Of a stretch of DNA of 64,000 nt, positions 1,213 through 63,655 are shown in pieces; position 1 is the stretch's first letter; each line of letters begins with the position of its first letter. The notes below the pieces were generated by a model, which saw only the letters and a program-made list of their open reading frames with translations, did not search any database and was not told the origin of the DNA. The translations under genes were made by a program, and so were the position numbers. The DNA is from Brachybacterium sacelli (lineage in GTDB: Bacteria > Actinomycetota > Actinomycetes > Actinomycetales > Dermabacteraceae), in assembly GCF_017876545.1 (NCBI RefSeq), contig NZ_JAGIOD010000001.1, positions 1,488,001-1,552,000 on the forward strand, in the 5' to 3' direction.

Positions 1213-1226
1213 TCTACGCGAGTAGA
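1213..1226. promoter_or_regulatory. LacI-family operator TCTACGCGAGTAGA
   Basis: Perfect 5-bp arms TCTAC/GTAGA around GCGA. On the opposite strand this reads TCTACTCGCGTAGA, identical to the site at 60759-60772 in front of the second LacI-headed ABC operon. Location just after the predicted transcription start supports repression by the LacI protein encoded next. Confidence 0.65.
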
Positions 1227-1265
1227 TGCGAGGGGCGAGCACAATCGCTATCGAGGAAGTGGCCC

Positions 1266-2381
1266 ATGTCCAGAGCCCTCAGGGCTACAGACGATCATGA
1301 TGTCCCCCAGGGGCCTGCGGAACCCGACCTTGCCTCCGGTCGTCCCGTCCGTGGCGCGCGGAGGGTGACTCGCGCCGACGTGGCCCTCGCTGCAGGGACG
1401 TCCACTGCCGTGGTCAGTTATGTGCTCAATGACGGTCCTCGGCCGGTCGCTCCCGCGACGCGGCGCCGGGTGCTCGAGGCGGTTGCGGCCACGGGGTACA
1501 GACCGGACAGCATCGCCAGGGCTCTCGCGTCGGGAGCAACGCGGACACTCGGACTCATCGTCCCGGACCTGTCCAACCCCTTCTTCACCGCGCTGGGCCA
1601 CTCCTTGGAGGACGTGGCCTCGAATGTCGGGCTGGTCTTCCTGCTCGGCGATTCCGCCGAGGATGCGGTGCGCCAAGAGGATCTCATCCAGAGCTTCATC
1701 AGCCGTCGTGTCGACGGCCTGGTCGTGGTGCCGGTCGACGAGGAGACCGAACTGTCCTCCGCGCGGGATGCCGGAATCCCTGTCGTACTGCTCGATCGGA
1801 CTCTGGCGGAACCCGAGATCAGCACCGTCGGCATCGACAACGTGGAAGCTGCCCGCGTCGCCACCGAGCACCTCATCGGCCATGGGCGTACGGACATCGG
1901 CCTGGTGAGCGGACCGAGCTCCCTCGTCACTGCCGAAGCTCGTGCACAGGGTTGGGAGGTCGCTCTTCGCAGCGCCGGACTCCCGGTGGATCCCCGCCGG
2001 GTGCATCGCACCGGGTTCGACCGTCGGGGCGGCTACCTCGCCGGCCTCGAGCTGTTCTCTTCGGACGTCCCCGTCGACGCGGTGTTCGTCGCGAGCGAGC
2101 AGCAAGCCGTCGGCCTTCTCCGTGCTGCCCATGAGAGGGGCACTCGGGTACCCACTGATACCGCAGTGGTGGCTGTCGACGGCACCGAGGCCTCGGAATA
2201 CTGCGTGCCGTCGCTGTCGACCATCTCGCAACGGTTCGACGAACTCGCTTCCCACGCACTCGAGTTGGTCCGGGTCCCGCGGAGTCGGGCACGCAGCATA
2301 GTCTGCGATTTCGATCTCGTCCGTCGCGCTTCGTGCGGGTGCACAGAAGCCACCTCCGACCAGGGAGGTTCCGACCGATGA
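1266..2381 (+). CDS. LacI-family transcriptional repressor of the first ABC / nucleoside hydrolase operon
   Basis: 371 aa. The HTH begins near residue 34 (VTRADVALAAGTSTAVVSYV) with the LacI hinge after it, and the periplasmic-binding-protein-like effector domain runs to the end, closing with the usual 'RRxSCGC'. The ATG at 1266 has GAGGAAG upstream, giving a ~33-residue N-terminal extension; the internal GTG at 1365 is a less favoured start. It is the first gene of its operon and its TGA overlaps the next ATG (ATGA). The HTH is almost identical to that of the LacI protein at the right end of the window, and both have the same operator, so cross-regulation is likely (inference). Confidence 0.9.
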   Translation: MSRALRATDDHDVPQGPAEPDLASGRPVRGARRVTRADVALAAGTSTAVVSYVLNDGPRPVAPATRRRVLEAVAATGYRPDSIARALASGATRTLGLIVPDLSNPFFTALGHSLEDVASNVGLVFLLGDSAEDAVRQEDLIQSFISRRVDGLVVVPVDEETELSSARDAGIPVVLLDRTLAEPEISTVGIDNVEAARVATEHLIGHGRTDIGLVSGPSSLVTAEARAQGWEVALRSAGLPVDPRRVHRTGFDRRGGYLAGLELFSSDVPVDAVFVASEQQAVGLLRAAHERGTRVPTDTAVVAVDGTEASEYCVPSLSTISQRFDELASHALELVRVPRSRARSIVCDFDLVRRASCGCTEATSDQGGSDR

Positions 2382-3682
2382 CCATTGGCCGCAGGACAGT
2401 GCTCGCAGCGCCCCTCGCGGCGACAGGTCTGCTCGCCGGGTGCTCCTCAGGGGCCGGCGACGAGAACACGCTGACCTTCCTGAACGCCCACAGCGGTGCC
2501 TACGACAACGTCGTCGAGGCCTTCGAGGACGCGCACCCCGGAGTGCGCATCGAGCTCCAGAGCGTTCCCTTCGAGCAGCTGGTCGAACAGATCCAGGCGC
2601 GCCTGGCATCCGGCGACTCGAGCATCGACGTGATGTCGGTGGACCCTCCGCGCCTCGCCGGGATGGTGGAGCAGGGATTCCTGACCGATGAGTCTGCGCA
2701 CGTGGACGCCATGCGCGAGAACGCGAGCGACGTCGGCATCAACTCGATCACGGCGCAGGACCGTCAGTGGGCCTACCCCCTGTGGACCAGCGACAACTTC
2801 CTCTTCTATCACCGGGGCGTGCTGGAGGCCGCAGGCGTGGACCTGCCCGGACGCTCCTCGGAGGACCGACTCACCTGGGAGCAGGTCCTGGACGTGGCAC
2901 GAGCGATGATCGACGGTGGGCAGACTCGTTACGGCCTCGCGATGGATCAGGTCAACCGGTACTACGCCGTGCAGCCGATGATCGAGTCCTTCGGCGCGAG
3001 CCCGGGACTCGTAGGCGAGGACAGCCTCTCTCCAGCCGTCGACGCGCCCGAGTGGATCGCCTTCGGGCAGTGGTACGCAGATCTCTTCGCCTCCGGTGTG
3101 ATGCCCCGCGGAGTCGACCCCGCGCAGATGGTGGACCTGTTCCGCTCGGGACAGTCGGCTTTCCTGCTCGGCGGCGCCTCGGGCATCGGGGAGCTCGCCG
3201 AGGGGGACTTCGCCTCCGCCTGGGACATGGCGCCCCATCCGTACTTCGAGGACGGTCCGATCGTCACTCCCACCGACTCCTGGGCCATCGGTATCAGCTC
3301 GTTCAGCACGAAGCAGGACCTCGCCCGAGAGTTCGTGCAGTTCGCGACCCTCGACCCGGAAGGGGCGCGCCTCTCCTCGAGCATCCTGAGCCTTCCGCCC
3401 GTGAACCCGACCGCCTTCGAGTTCTACGTGGAGGACCTCACCGCCCTCGCGCCCCATCAGACGAAGGGCTTCGCTGAGCTCTTCCGGACGGACAGCGACG
3501 AATACGCCCGCCACCGCCCGACGAGCGTGGGCTACGTGCAGTTCGAGAACACGATGAACGACGCCTTCACCGACCTGAGCACCGGCGCGGACGTCACTCG
3601 GGTCCTGACCGATGCACAGCAGACGCTCGAGCGACAACTCGCACGGCAACGAGAGCTCGCCAAGAGCGACGACAACCGCTGA
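2378..3682 (+). CDS. ABC transporter solute-binding lipoprotein (CUT1-type, family 1)
   Basis: 434 aa from the ATG at 2378, chosen because GGGAGG lies nine bases upstream and the start makes an ATGA overlap with the LacI gene. The N-terminus is a lipoprotein signal ending in LLAGC (Cys22), preceded by twin Arg (GRRTVL). The body is a type-1 extracellular sugar-binding fold. It would capture the ligand outside the membrane and deliver it to the two permeases downstream. Ligand unknown; the co-encoded nucleoside hydrolase points to a nucleoside-like compound rather than a plain sugar (inference). Confidence 0.88.
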   Translation: MTIGRRTVLAAPLAATGLLAGCSSGAGDENTLTFLNAHSGAYDNVVEAFEDAHPGVRIELQSVPFEQLVEQIQARLASGDSSIDVMSVDPPRLAGMVEQGFLTDESAHVDAMRENASDVGINSITAQDRQWAYPLWTSDNFLFYHRGVLEAAGVDLPGRSSEDRLTWEQVLDVARAMIDGGQTRYGLAMDQVNRYYAVQPMIESFGASPGLVGEDSLSPAVDAPEWIAFGQWYADLFASGVMPRGVDPAQMVDLFRSGQSAFLLGGASGIGELAEGDFASAWDMAPHPYFEDGPIVTPTDSWAIGISSFSTKQDLAREFVQFATLDPEGARLSSSILSLPPVNPTAFEFYVEDLTALAPHQTKGFAELFRTDSDEYARHRPTSVGYVQFENTMNDAFTDLSTGADVTRVLTDAQQTLERQLARQRELAKSDDNR

Positions 3683-55986: not shown

Positions 55987-56906
55987 CAGATGTCCCATCC
56001 CCTCCACCTGCGAAGGCCGAGGTAAGCGCAGATCACGGTGGTGCTGATCAGAGCGAGCACGATGCCCATCGCTGCCGCGTAGCCGGCCTCGTAGGTCGAG
56101 AAGGCCGTGGTGTACAGCAGTGAGCCGACGACCTCGGTCGAACCGGCGGGCCCGCCTCCCGTCATGATGTAGATGTAGTCGAAGACCAGGAACGACCAGA
56201 TGATCGTCATGAGGCCCATGAACACGAGCGTCGGGCGGATCCCGGGGATCGTGATGTGGAGGAACTGCTGGAACCCGCTGGCTCCATCGAGCTTCGCTGC
56301 CTCGTAGAGGGACGGGTTCACGCTCGCCATGGCGGCGATGAACACGACCATGAGGTAGCCCCACCACTGCCACGTGTTGGCGACGGCGACTCCGGGCAGC
56401 GCCGTCGACGTATTGCCGAGGACATTGATGTCCAGGCCGAGGACCGCGGTGATGCCGTAGACGGGGGAGTAGATGTTCTCCCAGATGGTGGCGACCACGA
56501 TGGTGGCGAGGGTGTAGGGGATGAAGAAGATGACCCGGAAGGCCATTTGCCCGCGGGTCGTGCGGGACAGGAGGAATGCGGCGGCGAGGGCCAGCCCGAC
56601 GGGCACGATGAGGAAGAAGAGCATCCACCAGATGTTGTTGACGAGAGCCTGGAGGAACTTGTCATCGGTGAACAGGCGCAGGTAGTTCTGCAGGCCGACG
56701 AAATGGGCCGGCCCGATGCCCGTCCAATCGGTGAACGAGTAGACCAGGCTCATGACGCCCGGGCCGCCGATGACGAAGACGTTCAGCGCCAGCAGAGGAG
56801 CGAGGAACGCCCACCCGGTGAGGGCCTTTCGCCGGCGGCGGGCCGCCGCGACCCGTCGACGGTCCTCATTCTGCGCGACGGTATGGGGCGGGGCGGTCGC
56901 CGTCAT
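55986..56906 (-). CDS. ABC transporter permease, MalF-type (second LacI-headed operon)
   Basis: 306 aa with six helices. EAA loop 'YEAAKLDGASGFQQFLHITIPGI'. The ATG at 56906 overlaps the binding-protein stop (ATGA); an ATG five codons upstream is less suitable. It pairs with the permease downstream. Confidence 0.9.
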   Translation of the reverse strand: MTATAPPHTVAQNEDRRRVAAARRRRKALTGWAFLAPLLALNVFVIGGPGVMSLVYSFTDWTGIGPAHFVGLQNYLRLFTDDKFLQALVNNIWWMLFFLIVPVGLALAAAFLLSRTTRGQMAFRVIFFIPYTLATIVVATIWENIYSPVYGITAVLGLDINVLGNTSTALPGVAVANTWQWWGYLMVVFIAAMASVNPSLYEAAKLDGASGFQQFLHITIPGIRPTLVFMGLMTIIWSFLVFDYIYIMTGGGPAGSTEVVGSLLYTTAFSTYEAGYAAAMGIVLALISTTVICAYLGLRRWRGWDI

Positions 56907-58279
56907 GGCTCGACCTGCCAATCCGGGATCGGTGGCACCTTGCCGCCCTCGTACTCCTCCTGGAACAGCTCATCCAGACCCTTGCAGTACTCCTCCGGGG
57001 AGAGCTGGCCGATGATGACACGGTCCATCTCCTCGTAGGTGTAGACGCCGCTGCGCGGTGGCCAGAACGTCCACGAGAGGAAACCGATCCGATCCGTCGC
57101 GTCGATGGAGTCGTACAGGCGGCGCACTCTGGCGTCGATGTCACCTGGATAGTCGTCGGGCTCGTAATGGAGGGGGAGAGGCTGGCTGGAGACGTCAGCG
57201 ACACTGCGGAGCTGAGCACGTGGATCTTGGATGAGGAAATCGAGGTACTCGGCGGCCTCGTCGGCTCGGGGGGAGTCCGAGTTGACGGAGATGGTCGATC
57301 CGACGCCCATGGCGTACAGGTCCTTCGTGGTCACGTCCCCGAACTGGGGGATCGGTGCCCAGTCCCACTGGTCGTCATTGCCCGCCTCGTCGTTGAAGTA
57401 CGGGGCCATGGCAGAGAAGGCCCAGCTGCCGATGAACAAGCACCCGACGGTGCCGTTGACGAGTCCGATCCAGAGGTCCGCCTCGTGGTTGGTGAAGTAG
57501 GACTCGACGCCTCCGCCGATCCATCCCTGGTCGAAGTAGTCCTTCAACAGGGCTATCGAGTCGATGATCCGCTGGTCGTCCCAGCCGATACTGCCGGTGA
57601 GAGCGTCATGGACCGCTTCTGGACCCGCGGCGTGGTTCATGAAGGAGCTGACCAGCCATTCGGTGGCTGCGGCCCAGTCGCCGGCGCCGATGCCGACCGG
57701 CATCATGTCAGCGTCCTTCGCCGCAGCCGCGAATGCTTCGAACTCTTCCCGGTTCGTCGGGATGTCCCAGCCCTTCTCCTCGAAGACCGCGGCGTTGTAC
57801 ACCATGATCATCGTTTCGTACGAGGTGGGGACCATGTAATTGTGCCCTTGGAGAACACCGGCTTCGTACGCCCAGGGCAGCACCTTGTCCTGCCAGGAGT
57901 TTTTCTCGGCGTACGAGTCCAGGGACGTGAACCGCTCAGCATTGACGAACTCGAGTCCGTAGGAAGGACCAGCCGTGTACACGAGGTCCGGCCCGGACCC
58001 CGACGCGATCGCTGTGCGCTGGAGCCTCTGGAGGGCGTCGTCGTCGCCCCGGATGGTGAGGCTGAGCGGCACCCCCGTCGTCTGCTCATTGAATGGTGCG
58101 ACGAAATTTTCCTGGTAGTGGTCGCGCTGATTGTTGTCGGTGAAAGTCAGCCACAGTGAAAGGCCGTTCCCGGTGCTTCGCGTGGCGGAGCCCTGCACAC
58201 ACCCGCTGAGGCCGGCGGTGAGTGCCGCGGTGGGAGCGAGTAACGCCAGGCTTCTTCGACTGAACGTTGGCTTGGCCAT
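56903..58279 (-). CDS. ABC transporter solute-binding lipoprotein (family 1), second LacI-headed operon
   Basis: 458 aa. Lipoprotein signal with twin Arg (FSRRSLALL) ending in LSGC (Cys27). Binding-protein features include 'VPTSYETMIMVYNAAVFEEKGWDIPTN'. It begins 11 bp after the glycohydrolase stop. Only weakly like the binding protein of the first operon, so the ligand may differ in its non-ribosyl part (inference). Confidence 0.9.
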   Translation of the reverse strand: MAKPTFSRRSLALLAPTAALTAGLSGCVQGSATRSTGNGLSLWLTFTDNNQRDHYQENFVAPFNEQTTGVPLSLTIRGDDDALQRLQRTAIASGSGPDLVYTAGPSYGLEFVNAERFTSLDSYAEKNSWQDKVLPWAYEAGVLQGHNYMVPTSYETMIMVYNAAVFEEKGWDIPTNREEFEAFAAAAKDADMMPVGIGAGDWAAATEWLVSSFMNHAAGPEAVHDALTGSIGWDDQRIIDSIALLKDYFDQGWIGGGVESYFTNHEADLWIGLVNGTVGCLFIGSWAFSAMAPYFNDEAGNDDQWDWAPIPQFGDVTTKDLYAMGVGSTISVNSDSPRADEAAEYLDFLIQDPRAQLRSVADVSSQPLPLHYEPDDYPGDIDARVRRLYDSIDATDRIGFLSWTFWPPRSGVYTYEEMDRVIIGQLSPEEYCKGLDELFQEEYEGGKVPPIPDWQVEP

Positions 58280-58290
58280 AGGAGTTCACG

Positions 58291-59589
58291 TCACCTTGTG
58301 ATGAGGTCTTCGGTGCGTCGGGCGAGGTCGGGGATCGAGGAGTTCTCGAAGCCGAACACGGCAGAGCGCACGTGGTCATTGATGGGGTCGGTCCACCGGG
58401 AGGGGATGCCGGCGGTGCCGCTCAGCGCGCCGAGGATGCTGCCGACCGTCGCGCCGTTCGAGTCGGTGTCCTTCCCGCCTTGGACCGTGAGTCCGATGCT
58501 CGCGGAGAAGTCGCCCTCGCCCCACAGGAGGGCCGCCGCGATGATCGCGGCATTGTTGACGGTGTGGACCCAGTGGTAGCCGCTCCAGGCGTGATCGGCG
58601 TCGTCGAGGGCCTCCTCCCAGGTACCGCCGTTGTTCCGGATGCGATGGACGCGGGTGAGCGCCTCGTGGATCCTGCTCCCCCGGGGGACGTAGTCGAGGG
58701 AGCGGGCGAAGACCTCGTGGACATCGTCCATGGAGAGGGCGAGGGAGAGGAGGGCGGCAGCCCACTGCTCGCCGTAGATGCCGTTCGCCCGGTGTGAGAG
58801 GTAGGCATCCTTGTAGGAGAGCCGCAGGGCACCGGCCGGGTCACCCGGATTGATGTAGCCGAAGACATCGCCGCGGATGAGCGCACCGATCCACTCCCGG
58901 TACGGGTTGCGGTAGGCGCCGGCCTCCTCGACACCGCGCTCCTCGACGAGGTTGCGGTAGGCGGCACGCTCTGCGGTGTAGGTCTGGTGGAAGGGCAGGC
59001 GCGTCATCCACTCGGTCGCGACGTCGGCACTGGTGAATTCGGTGCCGTACTCCTCGAGGATGTGCAGACCAAGGAGCGTGTAATCCACGTCGTCGTCCCG
59101 GGCGGAGCCGTCGATGCGACCGAGAGTGGTCTGCTCCCAGTTGTCCTCGCGCAGCTCGTACTGCTCGCGCAGACCGTCGGGCGCGGGCACGTAGTCGCGG
59201 AGCGGATAGGCGCCGGCTGCCTCGAGATACTCCTTGATGCGGGAGCGGGTCCAGTACACCCCGTACTCGACGGGCTTGCCGAGCATGTTCCCGCAGACGC
59301 GTCCGCGCCAGGCGGCGACAAGACGATCCGTCAGGTTCCCCGGAATGTCCAGCGTCACCGAGAGATCGGCGTCGAGCTGCTCCTCGATCTGCTTCAGATC
59401 GCTCGGTTCGTCGTACGGGAAGTTGGACTGGGGCAGCTTCTGCGCTTCGTCCATGAATGAGTCCCAGGTCGCGGACGCGAGGTGGGTCTCATCGCTGACG
59501 GTGCGGAGCGCGGCGACGTCATAGCCGGTCTGTTCCAGTTGGTCGAGCTCGTTCAGGATCGAGTCGCGGGTGGTTGCGTCCTCGCTCAT
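58291..59589 (-). CDS. ADP-ribosylglycohydrolase (DraG/ARH-like), translated from an internal start
   Basis: 432 aa from the ATG at 59589, which has AAAGGAGAA eight bases upstream, a very strong ribosome site. Mg2+-binding acid clusters are intact: 'WRGRVCGNMLGKPVEYG' (94-110), 'SARDDDVDYTLLGLHI' with D165-D167, and 'GGKDTDSNGATVGSILGAL' (371-389). The family cleaves N-glycosidic ADP-ribose bonds; members in sugar operons probably act on other ribosides. An upstream LacI repressor is encoded in the same frame with no stop codon, so this protein may be made both free and as part of a fusion. Confidence 0.87.
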   Translation of the reverse strand: MSEDATTRDSILNELDQLEQTGYDVAALRTVSDETHLASATWDSFMDEAQKLPQSNFPYDEPSDLKQIEEQLDADLSVTLDIPGNLTDRLVAAWRGRVCGNMLGKPVEYGVYWTRSRIKEYLEAAGAYPLRDYVPAPDGLREQYELREDNWEQTTLGRIDGSARDDDVDYTLLGLHILEEYGTEFTSADVATEWMTRLPFHQTYTAERAAYRNLVEERGVEEAGAYRNPYREWIGALIRGDVFGYINPGDPAGALRLSYKDAYLSHRANGIYGEQWAAALLSLALSMDDVHEVFARSLDYVPRGSRIHEALTRVHRIRNNGGTWEEALDDADHAWSGYHWVHTVNNAAIIAAALLWGEGDFSASIGLTVQGGKDTDSNGATVGSILGALSGTAGIPSRWTDPINDHVRSAVFGFENSSIPDLARRTEDLITR

Positions 59590-60678
59590 GGCTTCTCCTT
59601 TGGTGCGGGTTCTGGTGGGGGCATGGGTGGAGGCGATATGCGGTGCACGGTCCGGGGTTCGGAGGGGGTAGCACCCGCAGGATTCGCGTCTGACCAGCTC
59701 GTAGGACTCGATCGTGACGGTCTGCGGCGAGTTCGGGTCGAGGATGCGCTCGATGGCGGTGGACGCGATCTGCTCGAACGGCTGACGGATCGATGTCAGA
59801 GCGGGGTAGGTGAACGCCGAGGCGTCGGTGCCGTCCACGGCGATGACGGAGACATCCGCGGGGACGTCGATCCCACGCTCCTGCAGAGCTCGGAGCGCGC
59901 CGATTCCCTGCTCCTCGTTGCCCGTGAACAGGGCGTCGAAGTCCACACCGCCATCGAGCAGGCTCCCGGCAGCTCGATAACCTCCGTCCTTGGTGAATGA
60001 GGCCCAGGAGACGGCGGACTCCCGGACGTCGAGTGCTGCAGCATGGAGCGCGAGGTGCCACCCCGCGACACGGTCCACTGCAGTGGGCAGTTCGCGCTTG
60101 CCGGTGATGATCGCGTGGCGCGAGCGCCCGTGCTCGACCAGGTGCTGTGTAGCGAGCATGGACATGAGGCGGTTGTCCATCGTGACCTCGCCGATCCGCG
60201 CGTCGGTGGCACGGCGATCCAGGATGACGACCGGTGCACCTGCCGCCGATTCGATGATCTTCTCGATGGAGGGCCCGACGGGTGCGACCATCACGCCGTC
60301 CACTCGCCGCTCGACGAGCTTGGCGACGAGCATCGCCTCGTGGTCGGAGGACTCCCCGCTGTTTGCGAGGAGGAGGGTGTGGTCGTTGAGGAGAGCCGTC
60401 GTCTCGAGCTGCTTGGCGAGAGCCGCGAAGAACGGATTCTCGATATCCGGGACGACGAGGCCGAGCGTCCGCGTCTTCCCTGAGGCGAGGGCGCCTGCGA
60501 TGGGGTTCCGGCGGTACCCCGTCTGCTCGATCGCTTCGAGCACCTTCCTGCGGGTGTCGGGGGCGACGGGGCGCGGGCCATCGTTGATGACGTAGCTGAC
60601 GACAGCGGTGGACGTGCCGGCAGCGCGGGCGACATCAGCGCGCGTGGCTCGACGCCGAAGATCCTGTGGTTCGTGCAT
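58291..60678 (-). CDS. LacI-family repressor continuing in frame into ADP-ribosylglycohydrolase (795 aa)
   Basis: From the ATG at 60678 (GAGGA seven bases upstream) the frame stays open for 795 codons. Residues 1-335 are a complete LacI repressor: HTH 'ATRADVARAAGTSTAVVSYV', hinge, effector domain, and the usual end 'ELVRRESCG'. Residues 336-363 are a polar, Arg/Thr/Pro-rich linker without a stop codon, and residues 364-795 are the glycohydrolase, which also has its own start. The HTH closely matches the LacI protein at 1266, and two matching operators lie upstream. A sequencing error or a natural loss of the LacI stop codon are both possible. Confidence 0.8.
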   Translation of the reverse strand: MHEPQDLRRRATRADVARAAGTSTAVVSYVINDGPRPVAPDTRRKVLEAIEQTGYRRNPIAGALASGKTRTLGLVVPDIENPFFAALAKQLETTALLNDHTLLLANSGESSDHEAMLVAKLVERRVDGVMVAPVGPSIEKIIESAAGAPVVILDRRATDARIGEVTMDNRLMSMLATQHLVEHGRSRHAIITGKRELPTAVDRVAGWHLALHAAALDVRESAVSWASFTKDGGYRAAGSLLDGGVDFDALFTGNEEQGIGALRALQERGIDVPADVSVIAVDGTDASAFTYPALTSIRQPFEQIASTAIERILDPNSPQTVTIESYELVRRESCGCYPLRTPDRAPHIASTHAPTRTRTKGEAMSEDATTRDSILNELDQLEQTGYDVAALRTVSDETHLASATWDSFMDEAQKLPQSNFPYDEPSDLKQIEEQLDADLSVTLDIPGNLTDRLVAAWRGRVCGNMLGKPVEYGVYWTRSRIKEYLEAAGAYPLRDYVPAPDGLREQYELREDNWEQTTLGRIDGSARDDDVDYTLLGLHILEEYGTEFTSADVATEWMTRLPFHQTYTAERAAYRNLVEERGVEEAGAYRNPYREWIGALIRGDVFGYINPGDPAGALRLSYKDAYLSHRANGIYGEQWAAALLSLALSMDDVHEVFARSLDYVPRGSRIHEALTRVHRIRNNGGTWEEALDDADHAWSGYHWVHTVNNAAIIAAALLWGEGDFSASIGLTVQGGKDTDSNGATVGSILGALSGTAGIPSRWTDPINDHVRSAVFGFENSSIPDLARRTEDLITR

Positions 60679-60703
60679 GTATGGTCCTCGCCTCACGGAT
60701 GCA

Positions 60704-60717
60704 TCTACTCGTGTAGA
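60704..60717. promoter_or_regulatory. LacI-family operator TCTACTCGTGTAGA (downstream site)
   Basis: Perfect arms TCTAC/GTAGA, 27 bp before the LacI start at 60678 and inside the predicted 5' leader of the operon. Same class of site as 1213-1226. Between it and the next operator lies a separate 8-bp inverted repeat, ACTCCATG (60721-60728) / CATGGAGT (60742-60749). Confidence 0.65.
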
Positions 60718-60758
60718 TCAACTCCATGCAGCCGCTTCGCCCATGGAGTGCCGGTGGT

Positions 60759-60772
60759 TCTACTCGCGTAGA
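60759..60772. promoter_or_regulatory. LacI-family operator TCTACTCGCGTAGA (promoter-proximal site)
   Basis: Identical, on the reverse strand, to the operator at 1213-1226. It starts a few bases after the predicted transcription start of the minus-strand operon. The two operators are 55 bp apart, close to five helical turns, so cooperative binding is possible. Confidence 0.7.
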
Positions 60773-60783
60773 TAGTTCGGAAC

Positions 60784-60812
60784 ACCCTAGGAGCGCTGTG
60801 TGATGTACGCAA
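60784..60812 (-). promoter_or_regulatory. Sigma-70 promoter of the LacI / glycohydrolase / ABC operon
   Basis: On the minus strand TTGCGT (60812-60807), 17 bp, TAGGGT (60789-60784). Transcription would begin near 60777 and reach the first operator at once, the same layout as at 1168-1226. The remaining 60813-60982 up to the DeoR gene holds no recognisable gene. Confidence 0.55.
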
Positions 60813-60982
60813 CCCCCTGAGCGCAATCTGCCCGCTCGGACTCATCGGGCCGCCGGCTGGACGACCGCACTGAGTCCCTGGCCATTGGGGCTCCGCGGGC
60901 ACTCCATGCGACGACGCGACGTCCTGCACTCTGCCGGTGCCGACACTTCGCGTGGCCGTGACGACGCCGGGTCCCGCACCAG

Positions 60983-61765
60983 TCAGCCGCGCGCGATGAC
61001 GACCTCGACACCGAGGTCACGCACGCCGGCCGCGTCCTCTTCCGGCAGCGACGAGTCGGTGATGATCGAGCGGAACTCGCCGAGCGGGGCGACGCGGTAC
61101 TTCGCGAAGTGACCGAACTTCGCGGAGTCGGCGAGGAGCACCGAGGTGGTGGCGCTCGCCATCGCGGCGCGCTTGGCGTCGATCTTCGCCTCCATGGGGG
61201 TGGTGATGCCGTGCCGGGCGTCCCAGGAGCTCGAGGAGATGAACGCGATGTCGACCGAGAGCTCCCCGAGGGTGAGGGCGGCCAGGCGCCCGATCATCGA
61301 CTGGTTCGCGACGTCGACCCGCCCGCCCACACAGATCAGGTCGACGCAGGGATGATCGAGGAAGGCGCCGGCGGTGCCGAGGTCGTTGGTGACCACCGTG
61401 AGGTCGCGGCGGTCCTCCAGCAGTGGCCGCATGGCTTGGATGGTGGTGCCGGCGTCGAGGTAGAGCGTCATCGAGTCCGTGACGGTCTCCGCGGCGGCCG
61501 CGGCGATCGCGGACTTCGCGGCCATATTGGCCTCCGCCTTGGCGGAGCGGGGCGGCTCCTCGAGGAGGCGCGCGAGGGCGGCGACGCCACCCTGGGTGGC
61601 CCGGGCACGCCCTTGGTCGTCGAGCGCGGCGACGTCCCGGCGCACGGTCATCTGGCTGACGCCGAGCTGCTCCGTCAGCTGCCGGTAGCTGAGGACAGCG
61701 TCGGTGCGCAGCAGATCCAGGATGTGCTGTCGTCGCTGCTCGGGTATCAGGGGCGAAGTTCCCAC
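60983..61765 (-). CDS. DeoR/GlpR-family transcriptional regulator
   Basis: 260 aa. N-terminal DeoR HTH 'LSYRQLTEQLGVSQMTVRRDVAALDDQG' and C-terminal DeoRC sugar-phosphate sensor ('LYLDAGTTIQAM', 'VVTNDLGTA', 'ISSSSWDARHGITTP', 'LLADSAKFG'). GTG start at 61765 with GGAGGTGGG upstream. It is the last gene of the kinase/aldolase operon, 16 bp after the aldolase gene, so it likely controls that operon and senses a tetronate or its phosphate. Confidence 0.88.
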   Translation of the reverse strand: MGTSPLIPEQRRQHILDLLRTDAVLSYRQLTEQLGVSQMTVRRDVAALDDQGRARATQGGVAALARLLEEPPRSAKAEANMAAKSAIAAAAAETVTDSMTLYLDAGTTIQAMRPLLEDRRDLTVVTNDLGTAGAFLDHPCVDLICVGGRVDVANQSMIGRLAALTLGELSVDIAFISSSSWDARHGITTPMEAKIDAKRAAMASATTSVLLADSAKFGHFAKYRVAPLGEFRSIITDSSLPEEDAAGVRDLGVEVVIARG

Positions 61766-61781
61766 GGTCCCACCTCCTGCG

Positions 61782-62429
61782 TCAGTCTACGGTCGGCGTC
61801 GTCCACGGGCTCTGCCACCGCTGCGACAGATCCGCCGTCTGCTCGTCGGTCAGTTCGCGGCGCGGGGCACTGGCGGTGAGCAGGGCGATCCGACACGCCT
61901 CCTCCACTTCGACGGCCCGTTCGACGGCATCGGGGAGGCTGATGCCCGCCACCACGGATCCATGGTTCGCCAGCAGTGCGGCCCGGAATTCACCGGGGGC
62001 CTCGAGCACGTCGTCGCCGAGCTGTGGGGACCCCGGCATCCGGTAGGGCAGCAGCGGGGTGCTGCCCACCCGCATGACGAAGTACGGCGTCAGCGGCGGG
62101 ATCGCACTTGCCCGGCTCCACGGCTCGGTGCAGGAGAACGCGGTCGCCTGCGGGGAGTGGACGTGGACCACGGCGTGATTCCCGCTGCTGCGACCGTAGA
62201 AGCCGAGATGCAGCGGCGTCTCCTTGGAGGCTTTCGCGCCGCCCAGGACGGTGCCGCCCAGGGAGACCACGGCGAAGTCCGAGGGGTCGAGCGCGCCGAG
62301 CGGCGCCCCGGTGCCGGAGACGAGGAGGCGGTCGCCGTCGCGGGCCGAGATGTTGCCGGAGGTGCCCGGGCTGAGGCCGGCGTCGACGAGGGCGCGCCCG
62401 GCGGCGATGAGGTCGTCCATCACGGTCAT
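61782..62429 (-). CDS. otnC: Class II aldolase/adducin-type enzyme (OtnC-like 3-oxo-tetronate 4-phosphate decarboxylase)
   Basis: 215 aa. Zn-binding and phosphate-binding segments of the L-fuculose-1-P aldolase fold: 'GLSPGTSGNISARDG', 'VVHVHSPQATA' (HxH) and 'LLANHGSVVAG' (His). In four-carbon acid-sugar pathways this enzyme decarboxylates 3-oxo-tetronate 4-phosphate to dihydroxyacetone phosphate after the DUF1537 kinase. The ATG overlaps the kinase stop (ATGA). Another class II aldolase substrate is possible. Confidence 0.8.
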   Translation of the reverse strand: MTVMDDLIAAGRALVDAGLSPGTSGNISARDGDRLLVSGTGAPLGALDPSDFAVVSLGGTVLGGAKASKETPLHLGFYGRSSGNHAVVHVHSPQATAFSCTEPWSRASAIPPLTPYFVMRVGSTPLLPYRMPGSPQLGDDVLEAPGEFRAALLANHGSVVAGISLPDAVERAVEVEEACRIALLTASAPRRELTDEQTADLSQRWQSPWTTPTVD

Positions 62430-63655
62430 CGCAGGGCCTCCCATGCCGACGTGAACAGGTCGGTGCTCCCGAAGTTCCCACTCTTCAGTGCGAGCGCGAC
62501 GGTGCGGTCGCCGGATGCGGTGAGCGACCAGCACACCCCGGGGGCGATCTCGGGCCCGATGCGCAGTGCGGTGGCGCCCAGTGCGCCGACGACCGCTCCG
62601 CTGGACTCGCCGCCCGCGACGATGAGCGCGGCGCTGCGACCGGAGCCGACGAGCTGCGCAGCTACGGCAGCGATGACGGCTTCGACGGTGGCGGCCGGGT
62701 CGAGACGCTCCTCGGGACGCAGGATGTCGTCGCGGGAACGGGCGGCGCAGACCACGGGGATCGCGTCCTGGGGCTGGTCCTCGATCCAGCCGCTGACCTG
62801 CTTTGCGGCGGCAGCGGTGTCGTCGGCGGCGGCTAGCACGTCGATCACGTGCACGGGCTGGTTGCGGGAGGCGTGCTCGATCTGAGCGAGGCTCCGGGAG
62901 GAGACGCTGCCGCACAGCACGACGCGCCGCCCGGGATCGGGTGCGTGCCAGTCCTCGTCGCTGGCCGTCGGCCCCGGCATTCCCAGAGCCAGGCCTGATC
63001 CGCCGGAGACCAGGACGTCGTCGGCGACCGCTGCGCCGATGGTGCGCAGGTCCTCGTCGTCCTCCGTGTCGAGGACGATGTACGGAGCGTCGGCGGCATC
63101 GAGCGCGGTGCGCAGGGACGCCTCGCCGCCCGCGATGCGGCCGCGATGGATCTCGGTGACGTCGTGGACGCTCTGCGGGCGGAGCAGGTCGGCCACCCGC
63201 GACCGCGTCATGGGAGTGAGGGGATGGTGCCGCATCGACGAGTTCTCGAGCAGGTCCTCGCCGACGTAGAGATATCCCTCGCGGACCCGACGGCCGTTGG
63301 CCGGAAGCGCGGGGACCACGACGCTGCGCGGCGCATGAAGCATCTCGAGGGCGGCGTCGAGGATCGGGCCGATGGTGCCCTGATCGGTCGAGTCGAAGGT
63401 GGAGCAGTACTTCACGTAGAACTGCTCGGCACCCCAGCGCTGCAGCCTGGCCAGGGCGGCACGTGAGCGGGCCACCGCCTCGGCGACCGGTGCGGTGCGA
63501 GTCTTCAGGGCGATCACCACGGCATCGACCGTGCGCAGCTGCTCCGGGGAGAGCTCGGAGTCCTCGATCGTGACGAGCACCCGATGTCCCGAAGCGCGCA
63601 GCATCATCGCCAGATCCGTCGCGCCTGTGAAGTCGTCGGCCACTGCTCCGAGCAT
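62426..63655 (-). CDS. otnK: Four-carbon acid sugar kinase (DUF1537/OtnK family)
   Basis: 409 aa. N-terminal signature 'AVADDFTGATDLAMMLRASG' (DDxTGAxD), central 'VKYCSTFDSTDQGTIGPI', and C-terminal nucleotide-binding 'LIVAGGESSGAVVGALG' are those of the kinases that phosphorylate 3-oxo-tetronates, D-threonate or D-erythronate. GAGGAGA precedes the ATG at 63655. First gene of the operon with the aldolase and DeoR regulator, divergent from a SAF-type oxidoreductase. Confidence 0.87.
   Translation of the reverse strand: MLGAVADDFTGATDLAMMLRASGHRVLVTIEDSELSPEQLRTVDAVVIALKTRTAPVAEAVARSRAALARLQRWGAEQFYVKYCSTFDSTDQGTIGPILDAALEMLHAPRSVVVPALPANGRRVREGYLYVGEDLLENSSMRHHPLTPMTRSRVADLLRPQSVHDVTEIHRGRIAGGEASLRTALDAADAPYIVLDTEDDEDLRTIGAAVADDVLVSGGSGLALGMPGPTASDEDWHAPDPGRRVVLCGSVSSRSLAQIEHASRNQPVHVIDVLAAADDTAAAAKQVSGWIEDQPQDAIPVVCAARSRDDILRPEERLDPAATVEAVIAAVAAQLVGSGRSAALIVAGGESSGAVVGALGATALRIGPEIAPGVCWSLTASGDRTVALALKSGNFGSTDLFTSAWEALR

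What the first reader, a model, noticed from the sequence alone, without database searches (positions are those of the whole stretch)
58291..60678. LacI repressor and ADP-ribosylglycohydrolase share one open frame with an internal ribosome site
The LacI coding frame reaches its normal end (RRESCG) but has no stop codon. It continues through a 28-residue Arg/Thr-rich linker into a complete ADP-ribosylglycohydrolase with all acid clusters. The junction also holds a very strong ribosome site (AAAGGAGAA before ATG 59589). One gene could therefore make a DNA-bound, enzymatically active repressor plus the free enzyme. A repressor fused to the enzyme that destroys its likely inducer would be an unusual feedback design.
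Basis: partly seen in the sequence, partly recalled or inferred. Interest (0 to 1): 0.75.

Follow-up and report, generated by a model that had tools for sequence, protein, structure and literature searches.

The report
Sugar-type repressor joined to hydrolase enzyme
One bacterial gene encodes a gene-switch protein joined to a hydrolase and also carries a second internal start signal, and the same joined gene survives in distant relatives, so it is a real and rare arrangement, although nobody has shown what the joined protein does.

Summary
Minus strand 60678-58291 is one stop-free 795-residue frame: LacI-type repressor (1-336), 27-residue linker, ADP-ribosylglycohydrolase-fold (ARH) domain (364-795). 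A sequencing error is excluded: the six best hits in a 5.8-billion-protein set (75-88% identical over residues 300-795; one from Microlunatus soli) are all fused, whereas the best listed separate ARH is 63% and the best listed separate LacI 50% identical. The linker varies, but stays 27, 28 or 37 residues long, so frame is kept. Its ends are conserved as protein above a neutral model, strongly in the anchored ends, weakly in the most cautious count. The internal ribosome site and start codon persist (ATG here, GTG in M. soli). Two palindromic operators lie 55 bp apart before the gene in both genomes; the exact motif occurs otherwise only once, before a LacI paralogue here. Most likely this is an autoregulated uptake operon whose first gene makes a fused repressor-hydrolase plus free hydrolase. 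That the fusion destroys its own inducer at the promoter is unproven. Two other kinds of LacI in-frame join (to a lipoprotein, to an oxidoreductase), with internal starts, make tolerated stop loss a serious rival.

The parts
58291..60678 (-). fused lacI-arh reading frame, 795 aa plus stop
   Evidence: 795-805 aa fused homologues P0002-P0006, 646-aa fragment P0007
59671..60678 (-). LacI/GalR-type repressor part, residues 1-336 (HTH 15-58, sugar-binding 70-334)
   Evidence: Pfam
59590..59670 (-). linker, residues 337-363; predicted disordered
   Evidence: pLDDT below 50 for 317-367; lengths 27, 27, 27, 37, 28, 27, 27 in seven fusions; codon comparison
59593..59601 (-). internal Shine-Dalgarno AAAGGAGAA (codes K-G-E)
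   Evidence: AAGGGAGAA in the M. soli gene
59587..59589 (-). internal start codon ATG, residue 364
   Evidence: GTG in the M. soli gene; within one residue of the start of 25 of 34 separate ARH proteins; for the other 9 the aligner put N-terminal residues on the LacI part, so they are not scored
58294..59589 (-). ADP-ribosylglycohydrolase-fold domain, 432 aa
60703..60718 (.). predicted operator, copy near the start codon: ATCTACTCGTGTAGAT
   Evidence: counterpart in L118
60758..60773 (.). predicted operator, promoter-proximal copy, 55 bp from the first
   Evidence: same 55-bp spacing in L118
60784..60812 (-). possible promoter TTGCGT-17-TAGGGT, kept as TTGCGT-17-TAGAGT in L118
   Evidence: sequences, alignment; not called by the sigma-70 consensus scan
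56903..58279 (-). extracellular solute-binding protein, second gene of the operon
   Evidence: Pfam PF01547; 79% identical, same order in L118
55986..56921 (-). ABC permease 1
   Evidence: PF00528; 85% identical in L118
55084..56010 (-). ABC permease 2 (start approximate)
   Evidence: PF00528; 85% identical in L118

Best explanation
This is an established gene fusion at the head of an autoregulated ABC-transporter operon (lacI-arh, sbp, permease, permease). A LacI-type repressor binds two palindromic operators (ATCTACnCGnGTAGAT) 55 bp apart behind its promoter and shuts the operon off. Translation from the first ATG runs through a flexible linker and makes a repressor tethered to an ARH-fold hydrolase; ribosomes that enter at the internal site make additional free hydrolase from the ancestral arh start codon. 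The operon probably imports a riboside-like or ADP-ribose-like compound, which the hydrolase cleaves. Shown: the frame, its conservation, the operator motif and its placement, the conserved internal start, the fold (predicted) and the intact acid residues. Inferred: that both products are made, DNA binding, substrate, inducer, and any benefit of the tether.
For: The six best hits (75-88% identity over residues 300-795) are fused; the next is a separate ARH at 63% (120 of 2378 listed). The best listed separate LacI is 50% identical (120 of 1038 listed). Linker length is 27, 27, 27, 37, 28, 27, 27 aa. Window versus M. soli linker: in the ungapped ends 13 of 17 residues are identical, null probability 0.0004 or less; without the ribosome-site codons 10 of 14, 0.0003-0.006; 9 of 14 base differences in those 17 codons fall on the third position. 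The ribosome site uses GGA and GAA codons that are 8-9% and 20-35% of their sets in the two genes. Residue 362 (E, D or A) has a codon beginning with G after an invariant G361 in 7 of 7 fusions, and residue 364 is M in 6 and a GTG-coded V in 1. Operators: 3 in this genome, 2 in the M. soli genome, each with the 55-bp pair before this gene. The operon order is kept at 79-85% identity. Fold and acids.
Against: No expression or activity data. Only two DNA sequences of the fusion were available; the rest are proteins. If all 27 linker residues are counted without gap search, identity is 14 of 27 (null 0.001-0.04), and without the ribosome-site codons 11 of 24 (null 0.02-0.2). Six stop-free lineages alone would arise by chance with probability 0.05-0.29. 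LacI-SBP joins, in which a secretion signal follows the linker, show that an in-frame join need not mean a working fusion. P0007 has T-G-A-I-M at the junction, so its ribosome site may be weaker. In the M. soli gene the internal site is not the best anti-SD match.
Confidence: 0.6

Rival explanations
1. Tolerated stop loss. LacI proteins of this kind have free C-terminal tails; a lost stop let ribosomes run on in frame into arh. The long protein works as a plain repressor carrying a harmless passenger, and the enzyme that matters is the free form from the internal start.
For: Tails after the SCG(C) motif vary freely in the 32 separate LacI proteins printed. Same layout (in-frame join with a likely internal ribosome site) in LacI-SBP P0122/P0123, seen as protein only, where a lipoprotein-type signal follows the linker, and in LacI-GFO/MocA in L120 (AGGGAG then GTG in the DNA). 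The internal start is conserved.
Against: Kept in 7 of 7 members down to 75% identity with frame-keeping length changes; linker ends conserved as protein; no separate version listed closer than 50% (LacI) or 63% (ARH).
Confidence: 0.3
2. Fusion only: the internal site is a remnant of the old arh start and is little used; the enzyme acts mainly as part of the repressor.
For: The junction K-G-E could be kept for other reasons; in P0007 it is changed; the site ranks only 5th of 27 in-frame starts in the M. soli gene.
Against: ATG to GTG change that keeps a start codon, and less-used GGA-GAA codons kept in both genes.
Confidence: 0.08
3. Sequencing or assembly artefact: a missing stop or frameshift joins two ordinary genes.
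For: None found here.
Against: Six further fused proteins from several source databases, one from a 6.7-Mb contig whose DNA was read here and matches the protein exactly.
Confidence: 0.01

Closest known systems
LacI/GalR-family repressors (RbsR, CcpA, PurR)
   Same: HTH plus periplasmic-binding-type sensor; palindromic operator with central CG; predicted autoregulation. Best NCBIfam score RbsR 199.1 bits.
   Different: Below the cut-off of every NCBIfam model listed (RbsR 199.1 against 382); carries a C-terminal enzyme domain.
ARH/DraG family of (ADP-ribosyl)hydrolases (ARH3, ARH1, DraG, MJ1187, Tri1)
   Different: 14-21% identical; D-D-D at 528-530 where family members as recalled have T/S-D-D; far below DraG and Tri1 equivalog cut-offs (24.4 against 337.05; 26.5 against 490). 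Substrate unknown.
Unfused LacI / ARH / SBP / permease / permease / ribokinase / UgpC operon of Mycolicibacterium arabiense plasmid pJCM18538 (as annotated)
   Same: Same gene order; ARH 48%, permeases 52%, SBP 37% identical.
   Different: LacI 28% identical, and a separate gene annotated 191 nt before arh (the ARH similarity begins 45 nt before the annotated start).
Trigger enzymes and enzyme-derived regulators (PutA, BirA, NadR; BzdR, PMC3602430)
   Same: Regulator and enzyme fold in one polypeptide. Named from memory; BzdR from title and start of abstract in a search listing.
   Different: Here the regulator is a complete LacI protein with its own sensor, and an internal start can release the enzyme part.
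ARG-centred gene neighbourhoods with Nudix or WYL regulators (Viruses 2022, PMC9503650; section 3.8 read whole, other passages by search)
   Same: ARH-fold enzyme paired with a one-component repressor thought to sense ADP-ribose.
   Different: Those neighbourhoods are proposed as antiviral, with phosphatases and chaperones; this one is an ABC-uptake operon with a LacI repressor fused to the enzyme.

Membership tests
LacI/GalR repressor family | LacI-type HTH plus sugar-binding sensor domain above curated cut-off | tested here: met
   PF00356 40.1 (cut-off 27); PF13377 95.2 (26.5)
LacI/GalR repressor family | palindromic operator near its own promoter | tested here: met
   CTACNCGNGTAG, exact matches: 3 sites in the 4.87-Mb genome, two before this gene, one before a LacI paralogue; 2 sites in the 6.7-Mb M. 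soli genome, both before the gene. The reversed control pattern occurs 15 and 4 times, so the motif is not frequent; the evidence is its placement. Sequence only, no binding data.
LacI/GalR repressor family | binding to DNA and release by an effector | not testable with these tools
   needs purified protein
RbsR equivalog (NF047341) | score at or above 382 bits | tested here: not met
   199.1 bits
ADP-ribosylglycohydrolase fold family (PF03747) | profile match above cut-off over the whole domain | tested here: met
   150.7 bits, cut-off 26.2, profile 1-287 of 287
ADP-ribosylglycohydrolase fold family (PF03747) | acid residues for a two-metal centre | tested here: met
   E471, D528-D530, D737, D739, S740 identical in 41 of 41 rows; first motif is DDD, not T/S-D-D. 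E471 matched by alignment to DraG and MJ1187, D737-S740 region to these and 6dre; D528-D530 assigned from recalled motifs
DraG (TIGR02662) and Tri1 (NF041672) equivalogs | score above the equivalog cut-off | tested here: not met
   24.4 against 337.05; 26.5 against 490
ADP-ribosyl hydrolase activity | cleavage of an ADP-ribosyl or ribosyl bond | not testable with these tools
   needs enzyme assay
Genes with a second in-frame translation start | conserved internal Shine-Dalgarno and start codon | tested here: met
   two DNA sequences; the other five known as protein only: G361 and a following G-codon residue in all, P0007 the least like the rest
Genes with a second in-frame translation start | both products detected | not testable with these tools
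   needs Western blot or ribosome profiling

The most novel reading that the evidence does not exclude
A repressor that carries the enzyme for its own inducer: the DNA-bound fusion erases inducer at the operator and so sets a local threshold, while the same messenger releases free enzyme through a conserved internal start, the ratio of the two forming the feedback. The tether might also join two dimers across the two operators 55 bp apart, taking the place of LacI's tetramer helix. More broadly, stop-less LacI genes joined in frame to the next gene with an internal start (ARH, SBP, GFO/MocA) could be a recurrent, unrecognised operon-head design in actinobacteria.
Probability: 0.25. Interest if true: 0.75.

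Novelty: new variant of a known kind. Interest (0 to 1): 0.5.

Why it matters
LacI repressors are the textbook switch, and the inducer's fate is normally left to separate enzymes. A conserved fusion of switch and enzyme with a built-in second start would let one gene set both sensing and removal of the signal, and offers a simple laboratory system to test whether tethering an enzyme to its repressor changes induction thresholds. It also gives the poorly understood ARH subfamily with the RDDD(V/I)DY motif a regulatory and transport context, with an unfused relative in the same genus beside NAD-salvage-type genes.

Tried and rejected
Sequencing error: rejected by independent fused copies. Chance open frame in high-G+C DNA: 0 of 33 scored LacI homologues read on past 101 residues (34 given, L007 not scored). 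Fusion common in the group: 53 ARH loci were tested for LacI by tblastn within their 1.5-kb flanks: 30 of the 31 matches listed (E up to 1e-40; one had no locus), and 23 of the 23 matches (E up to 1e-60). Two are fused (this one and G509), one has LacI just upstream in another frame (L075, G336), one has a LacI downstream (L116). Same genus: 5 of 38 genomes match at E 0.001, only 2 strongly, and the other strong one (G015) has ARH separate. LacI further away than the flanks was not looked for in most of these.

Conserved RNA fold at the junction: none seen (z -1.45 and -0.07). Consensus sigma-70 promoter or terminator in 59450-60980: none found, so the promoter in parts rests on conservation alone. 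The genome-contig scans gave no fused locus. Literature searches for LacI with ADP-ribosylglycohydrolase and fusion, ribokinase/ABC/operon, DraG/nucleoside/transporter, LacI fused enzyme domain, internal translation initiation, LacI bifunctional, NrtR, ARG domain with LacI showed no report of this fusion in that library; subscription papers are not covered. Public databases do name two of the fused proteins as such or by the enzyme. PMC11833690 was seen in passages only and not used. The LacI half of the model is poor (many residues under pLDDT 60), so its fold rests on Pfam and Foldseek matches.

The neutral tests depend on the neutral distance (NG86 dS 0.65-0.87 over four segments; 47% of 183 four-fold sites differ) and on where gaps are put; favourable and unfavourable versions are both given. 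The null simulations use a simple F81 model and, a star tree. In one search the M. soli slice ran past its stop (its self-check printed False); the ORF was re-cut and matched P0004 exactly.

Full report
What is there. The minus strand from 60678 to 58291 is one open frame of 795 codons. Pfam places a LacI HTH at 15-58, a sugar-binding sensor at 70-334 and a full-length ADP-ribosylglycohydrolase domain at 455-761. The linker is residues 337-363. AAAGGAGAA precedes an in-frame ATG, residue 364, at 59589. The frame starts a likely four-gene operon: the next gene, 11 nt on, is a solute-binding protein, followed by two ABC permeases.

It is real and conserved. In a search of 5.8 billion proteins with residues 300-795, 120 of 2378 hits were listed; the first six are fused LacI-ARH proteins (75-88% identical; one, P0007, a fragment) and the other 114 are 437-488 aa long with only the ARH domain, best 63%. 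A second search with residues 1-345, which by its length limits (437 aa or more) cannot return ordinary separate LacI proteins, gave 12 hits: the same six, two LacI-SBP proteins and four proteins with diguanylate-cyclase domains. In a third search the best of 120 listed (of 1038) separate LacI proteins is 50% identical, from Georgenia halophila, on a contig of the same length as that of its 63% ARH. All three searches score only the candidates that share most five-residue words, so remote independent fusions could be missed. One fused copy is Microlunatus soli; its protein equals the translation of DNA from genome G509 letter for letter. M. soli belongs to Propionibacteriales; that this genome is of another order is inferred from its relatives, not told by a tool. 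In G509 the whole operon is in the same order at 79-85% identity, and the ORFs on either side look different by eye (not annotated), so the four genes may be a module that moved; in this genus only 2 of 38 genomes have a strong ARH match.

Is the linker translated? Seven linkers are 27, 27, 27, 37, 28, 27 and 27 residues long although their letters differ widely: frame is kept. Freedom from stops alone is weak evidence (chance 0.05-0.29). Comparing this gene with M. soli, the ungapped linker ends keep 13 of 17 residues, 10 of 14 without the ribosome-site codons, well above a neutral model (0.0004 or less; 0.0003-0.006). With all 27 residues and no gap search it is 14 of 27 (0.001-0.04), and without the ribosome-site codons 11 of 24 (0.02-0.2). 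I read this as good but not overwhelming evidence that the linker is made as protein. As a control, 33 scored LacI homologues (of 34 given) all stop within 101 residues of the same point, 32 of them within 37.

Is the internal start used? AAAGGAGAA-GCC-ATG here is AAGGGAGAA-ACC-GTG in M. soli, kept with codons that are less used in both genes. In the seven proteins G361 is invariant and the next residue (E, E, E, E, E, D, A) always has a codon beginning with G, compatible with GGAG; residue 364 is M in six and V in one. The residue lies within one position of the start of 25 of 34 separate ARH proteins; the other nine could not be scored because the aligner placed their first residues on the LacI part. 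The site pairs best of 22 in-frame starts here, but 5th of 27 in M. soli.

The repressor half probably works on its own operon. CTACNCGNGTAG occurs three times in the 4.87-Mb genome: two copies 55 bp apart between a conserved TTGCGT-17-TAGGGT element and the gene, and one before a 48% identical LacI paralogue at the other end of the window. In G509 (6.7 Mb) it occurs exactly twice, again 55 bp apart before the fusion. The reversed pattern occurs 15 and 4 times, so the motif is rare in both and its placement is the point.

How it most likely works. Without ligand the fused LacI dimer sits on two operators and represses the operon. Imported compound induces, giving more transporter, fusion and free hydrolase; hydrolysis removes the compound or its derivative and repression returns. 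The steps after operator recognition are inferred.

Results against. Two LacI-SBP proteins have K-E-E-P-S-M or K-E-E-S-T-M at the join and then a lipoprotein-type signal, so a functional fusion is hard to imagine there, and genome G123 has a LacI-GFO/MocA frame with AGGGAG and an in-frame GTG at the join. Such joins may therefore arise by stop loss and be tolerated because the second gene keeps its own start. For the ARH case, persistence in seven members and constrained linker ends speak for more than tolerance, but only experiment can decide.

Verdict. Real, conserved, rare architecture; new variant of a known kind. The feedback story is plausible and untested.

Noticed in passing
window 1214-2381 and 2378-3682 (+): A 48% identical LacI paralogue with one copy of the same operator before it, joined to a solute-binding protein gene by an ATGA overlap; metagenomic proteins P0122/P0123 have a similar LacI fused in frame to such a binding protein.
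   Followed up: partly
L120:10083-12152 (-): LacI joined in one 690-aa frame to a GFO/IDH/MocA oxidoreductase, with AGGGAG and in-frame GTG at the join, about 0.9 kb from a separate ARH gene.
   Followed up: partly
L124:6259-14061 (-): In a genome of the same genus, a separate ARH gene lies between ABC permeases and a PRPP-synthetase-like gene, a nicotinate/nicotinamide phosphoribosyltransferase and a weak NrtR-like match: a possible NAD-salvage operon.
   Followed up: partly
L077, L081, L082, L084-L086, L090, L091, L093, L094, L108, L109, L111, L113-L117: A second, short ARH-like match lies just upstream of the ARH gene, mostly in another frame (same frame in L114); possibly tandem ARH genes.
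   Followed up: no
residue 736 of the fusion (58471-58473): All seven fused proteins have K beside D737, where the separate relatives aligned mostly have W or L; possible change of substrate.
   Followed up: no
window 60983-63655 (-): Neighbouring genes upstream: DeoR regulator, class II aldolase, 3-oxo-tetronate kinase (394.3 bits, cut-off 350).
   Followed up: no
P0124-P0127: LacI-type sensor domains without a listed LacI HTH joined to diguanylate cyclase (GGDEF) domains.
   Followed up: no
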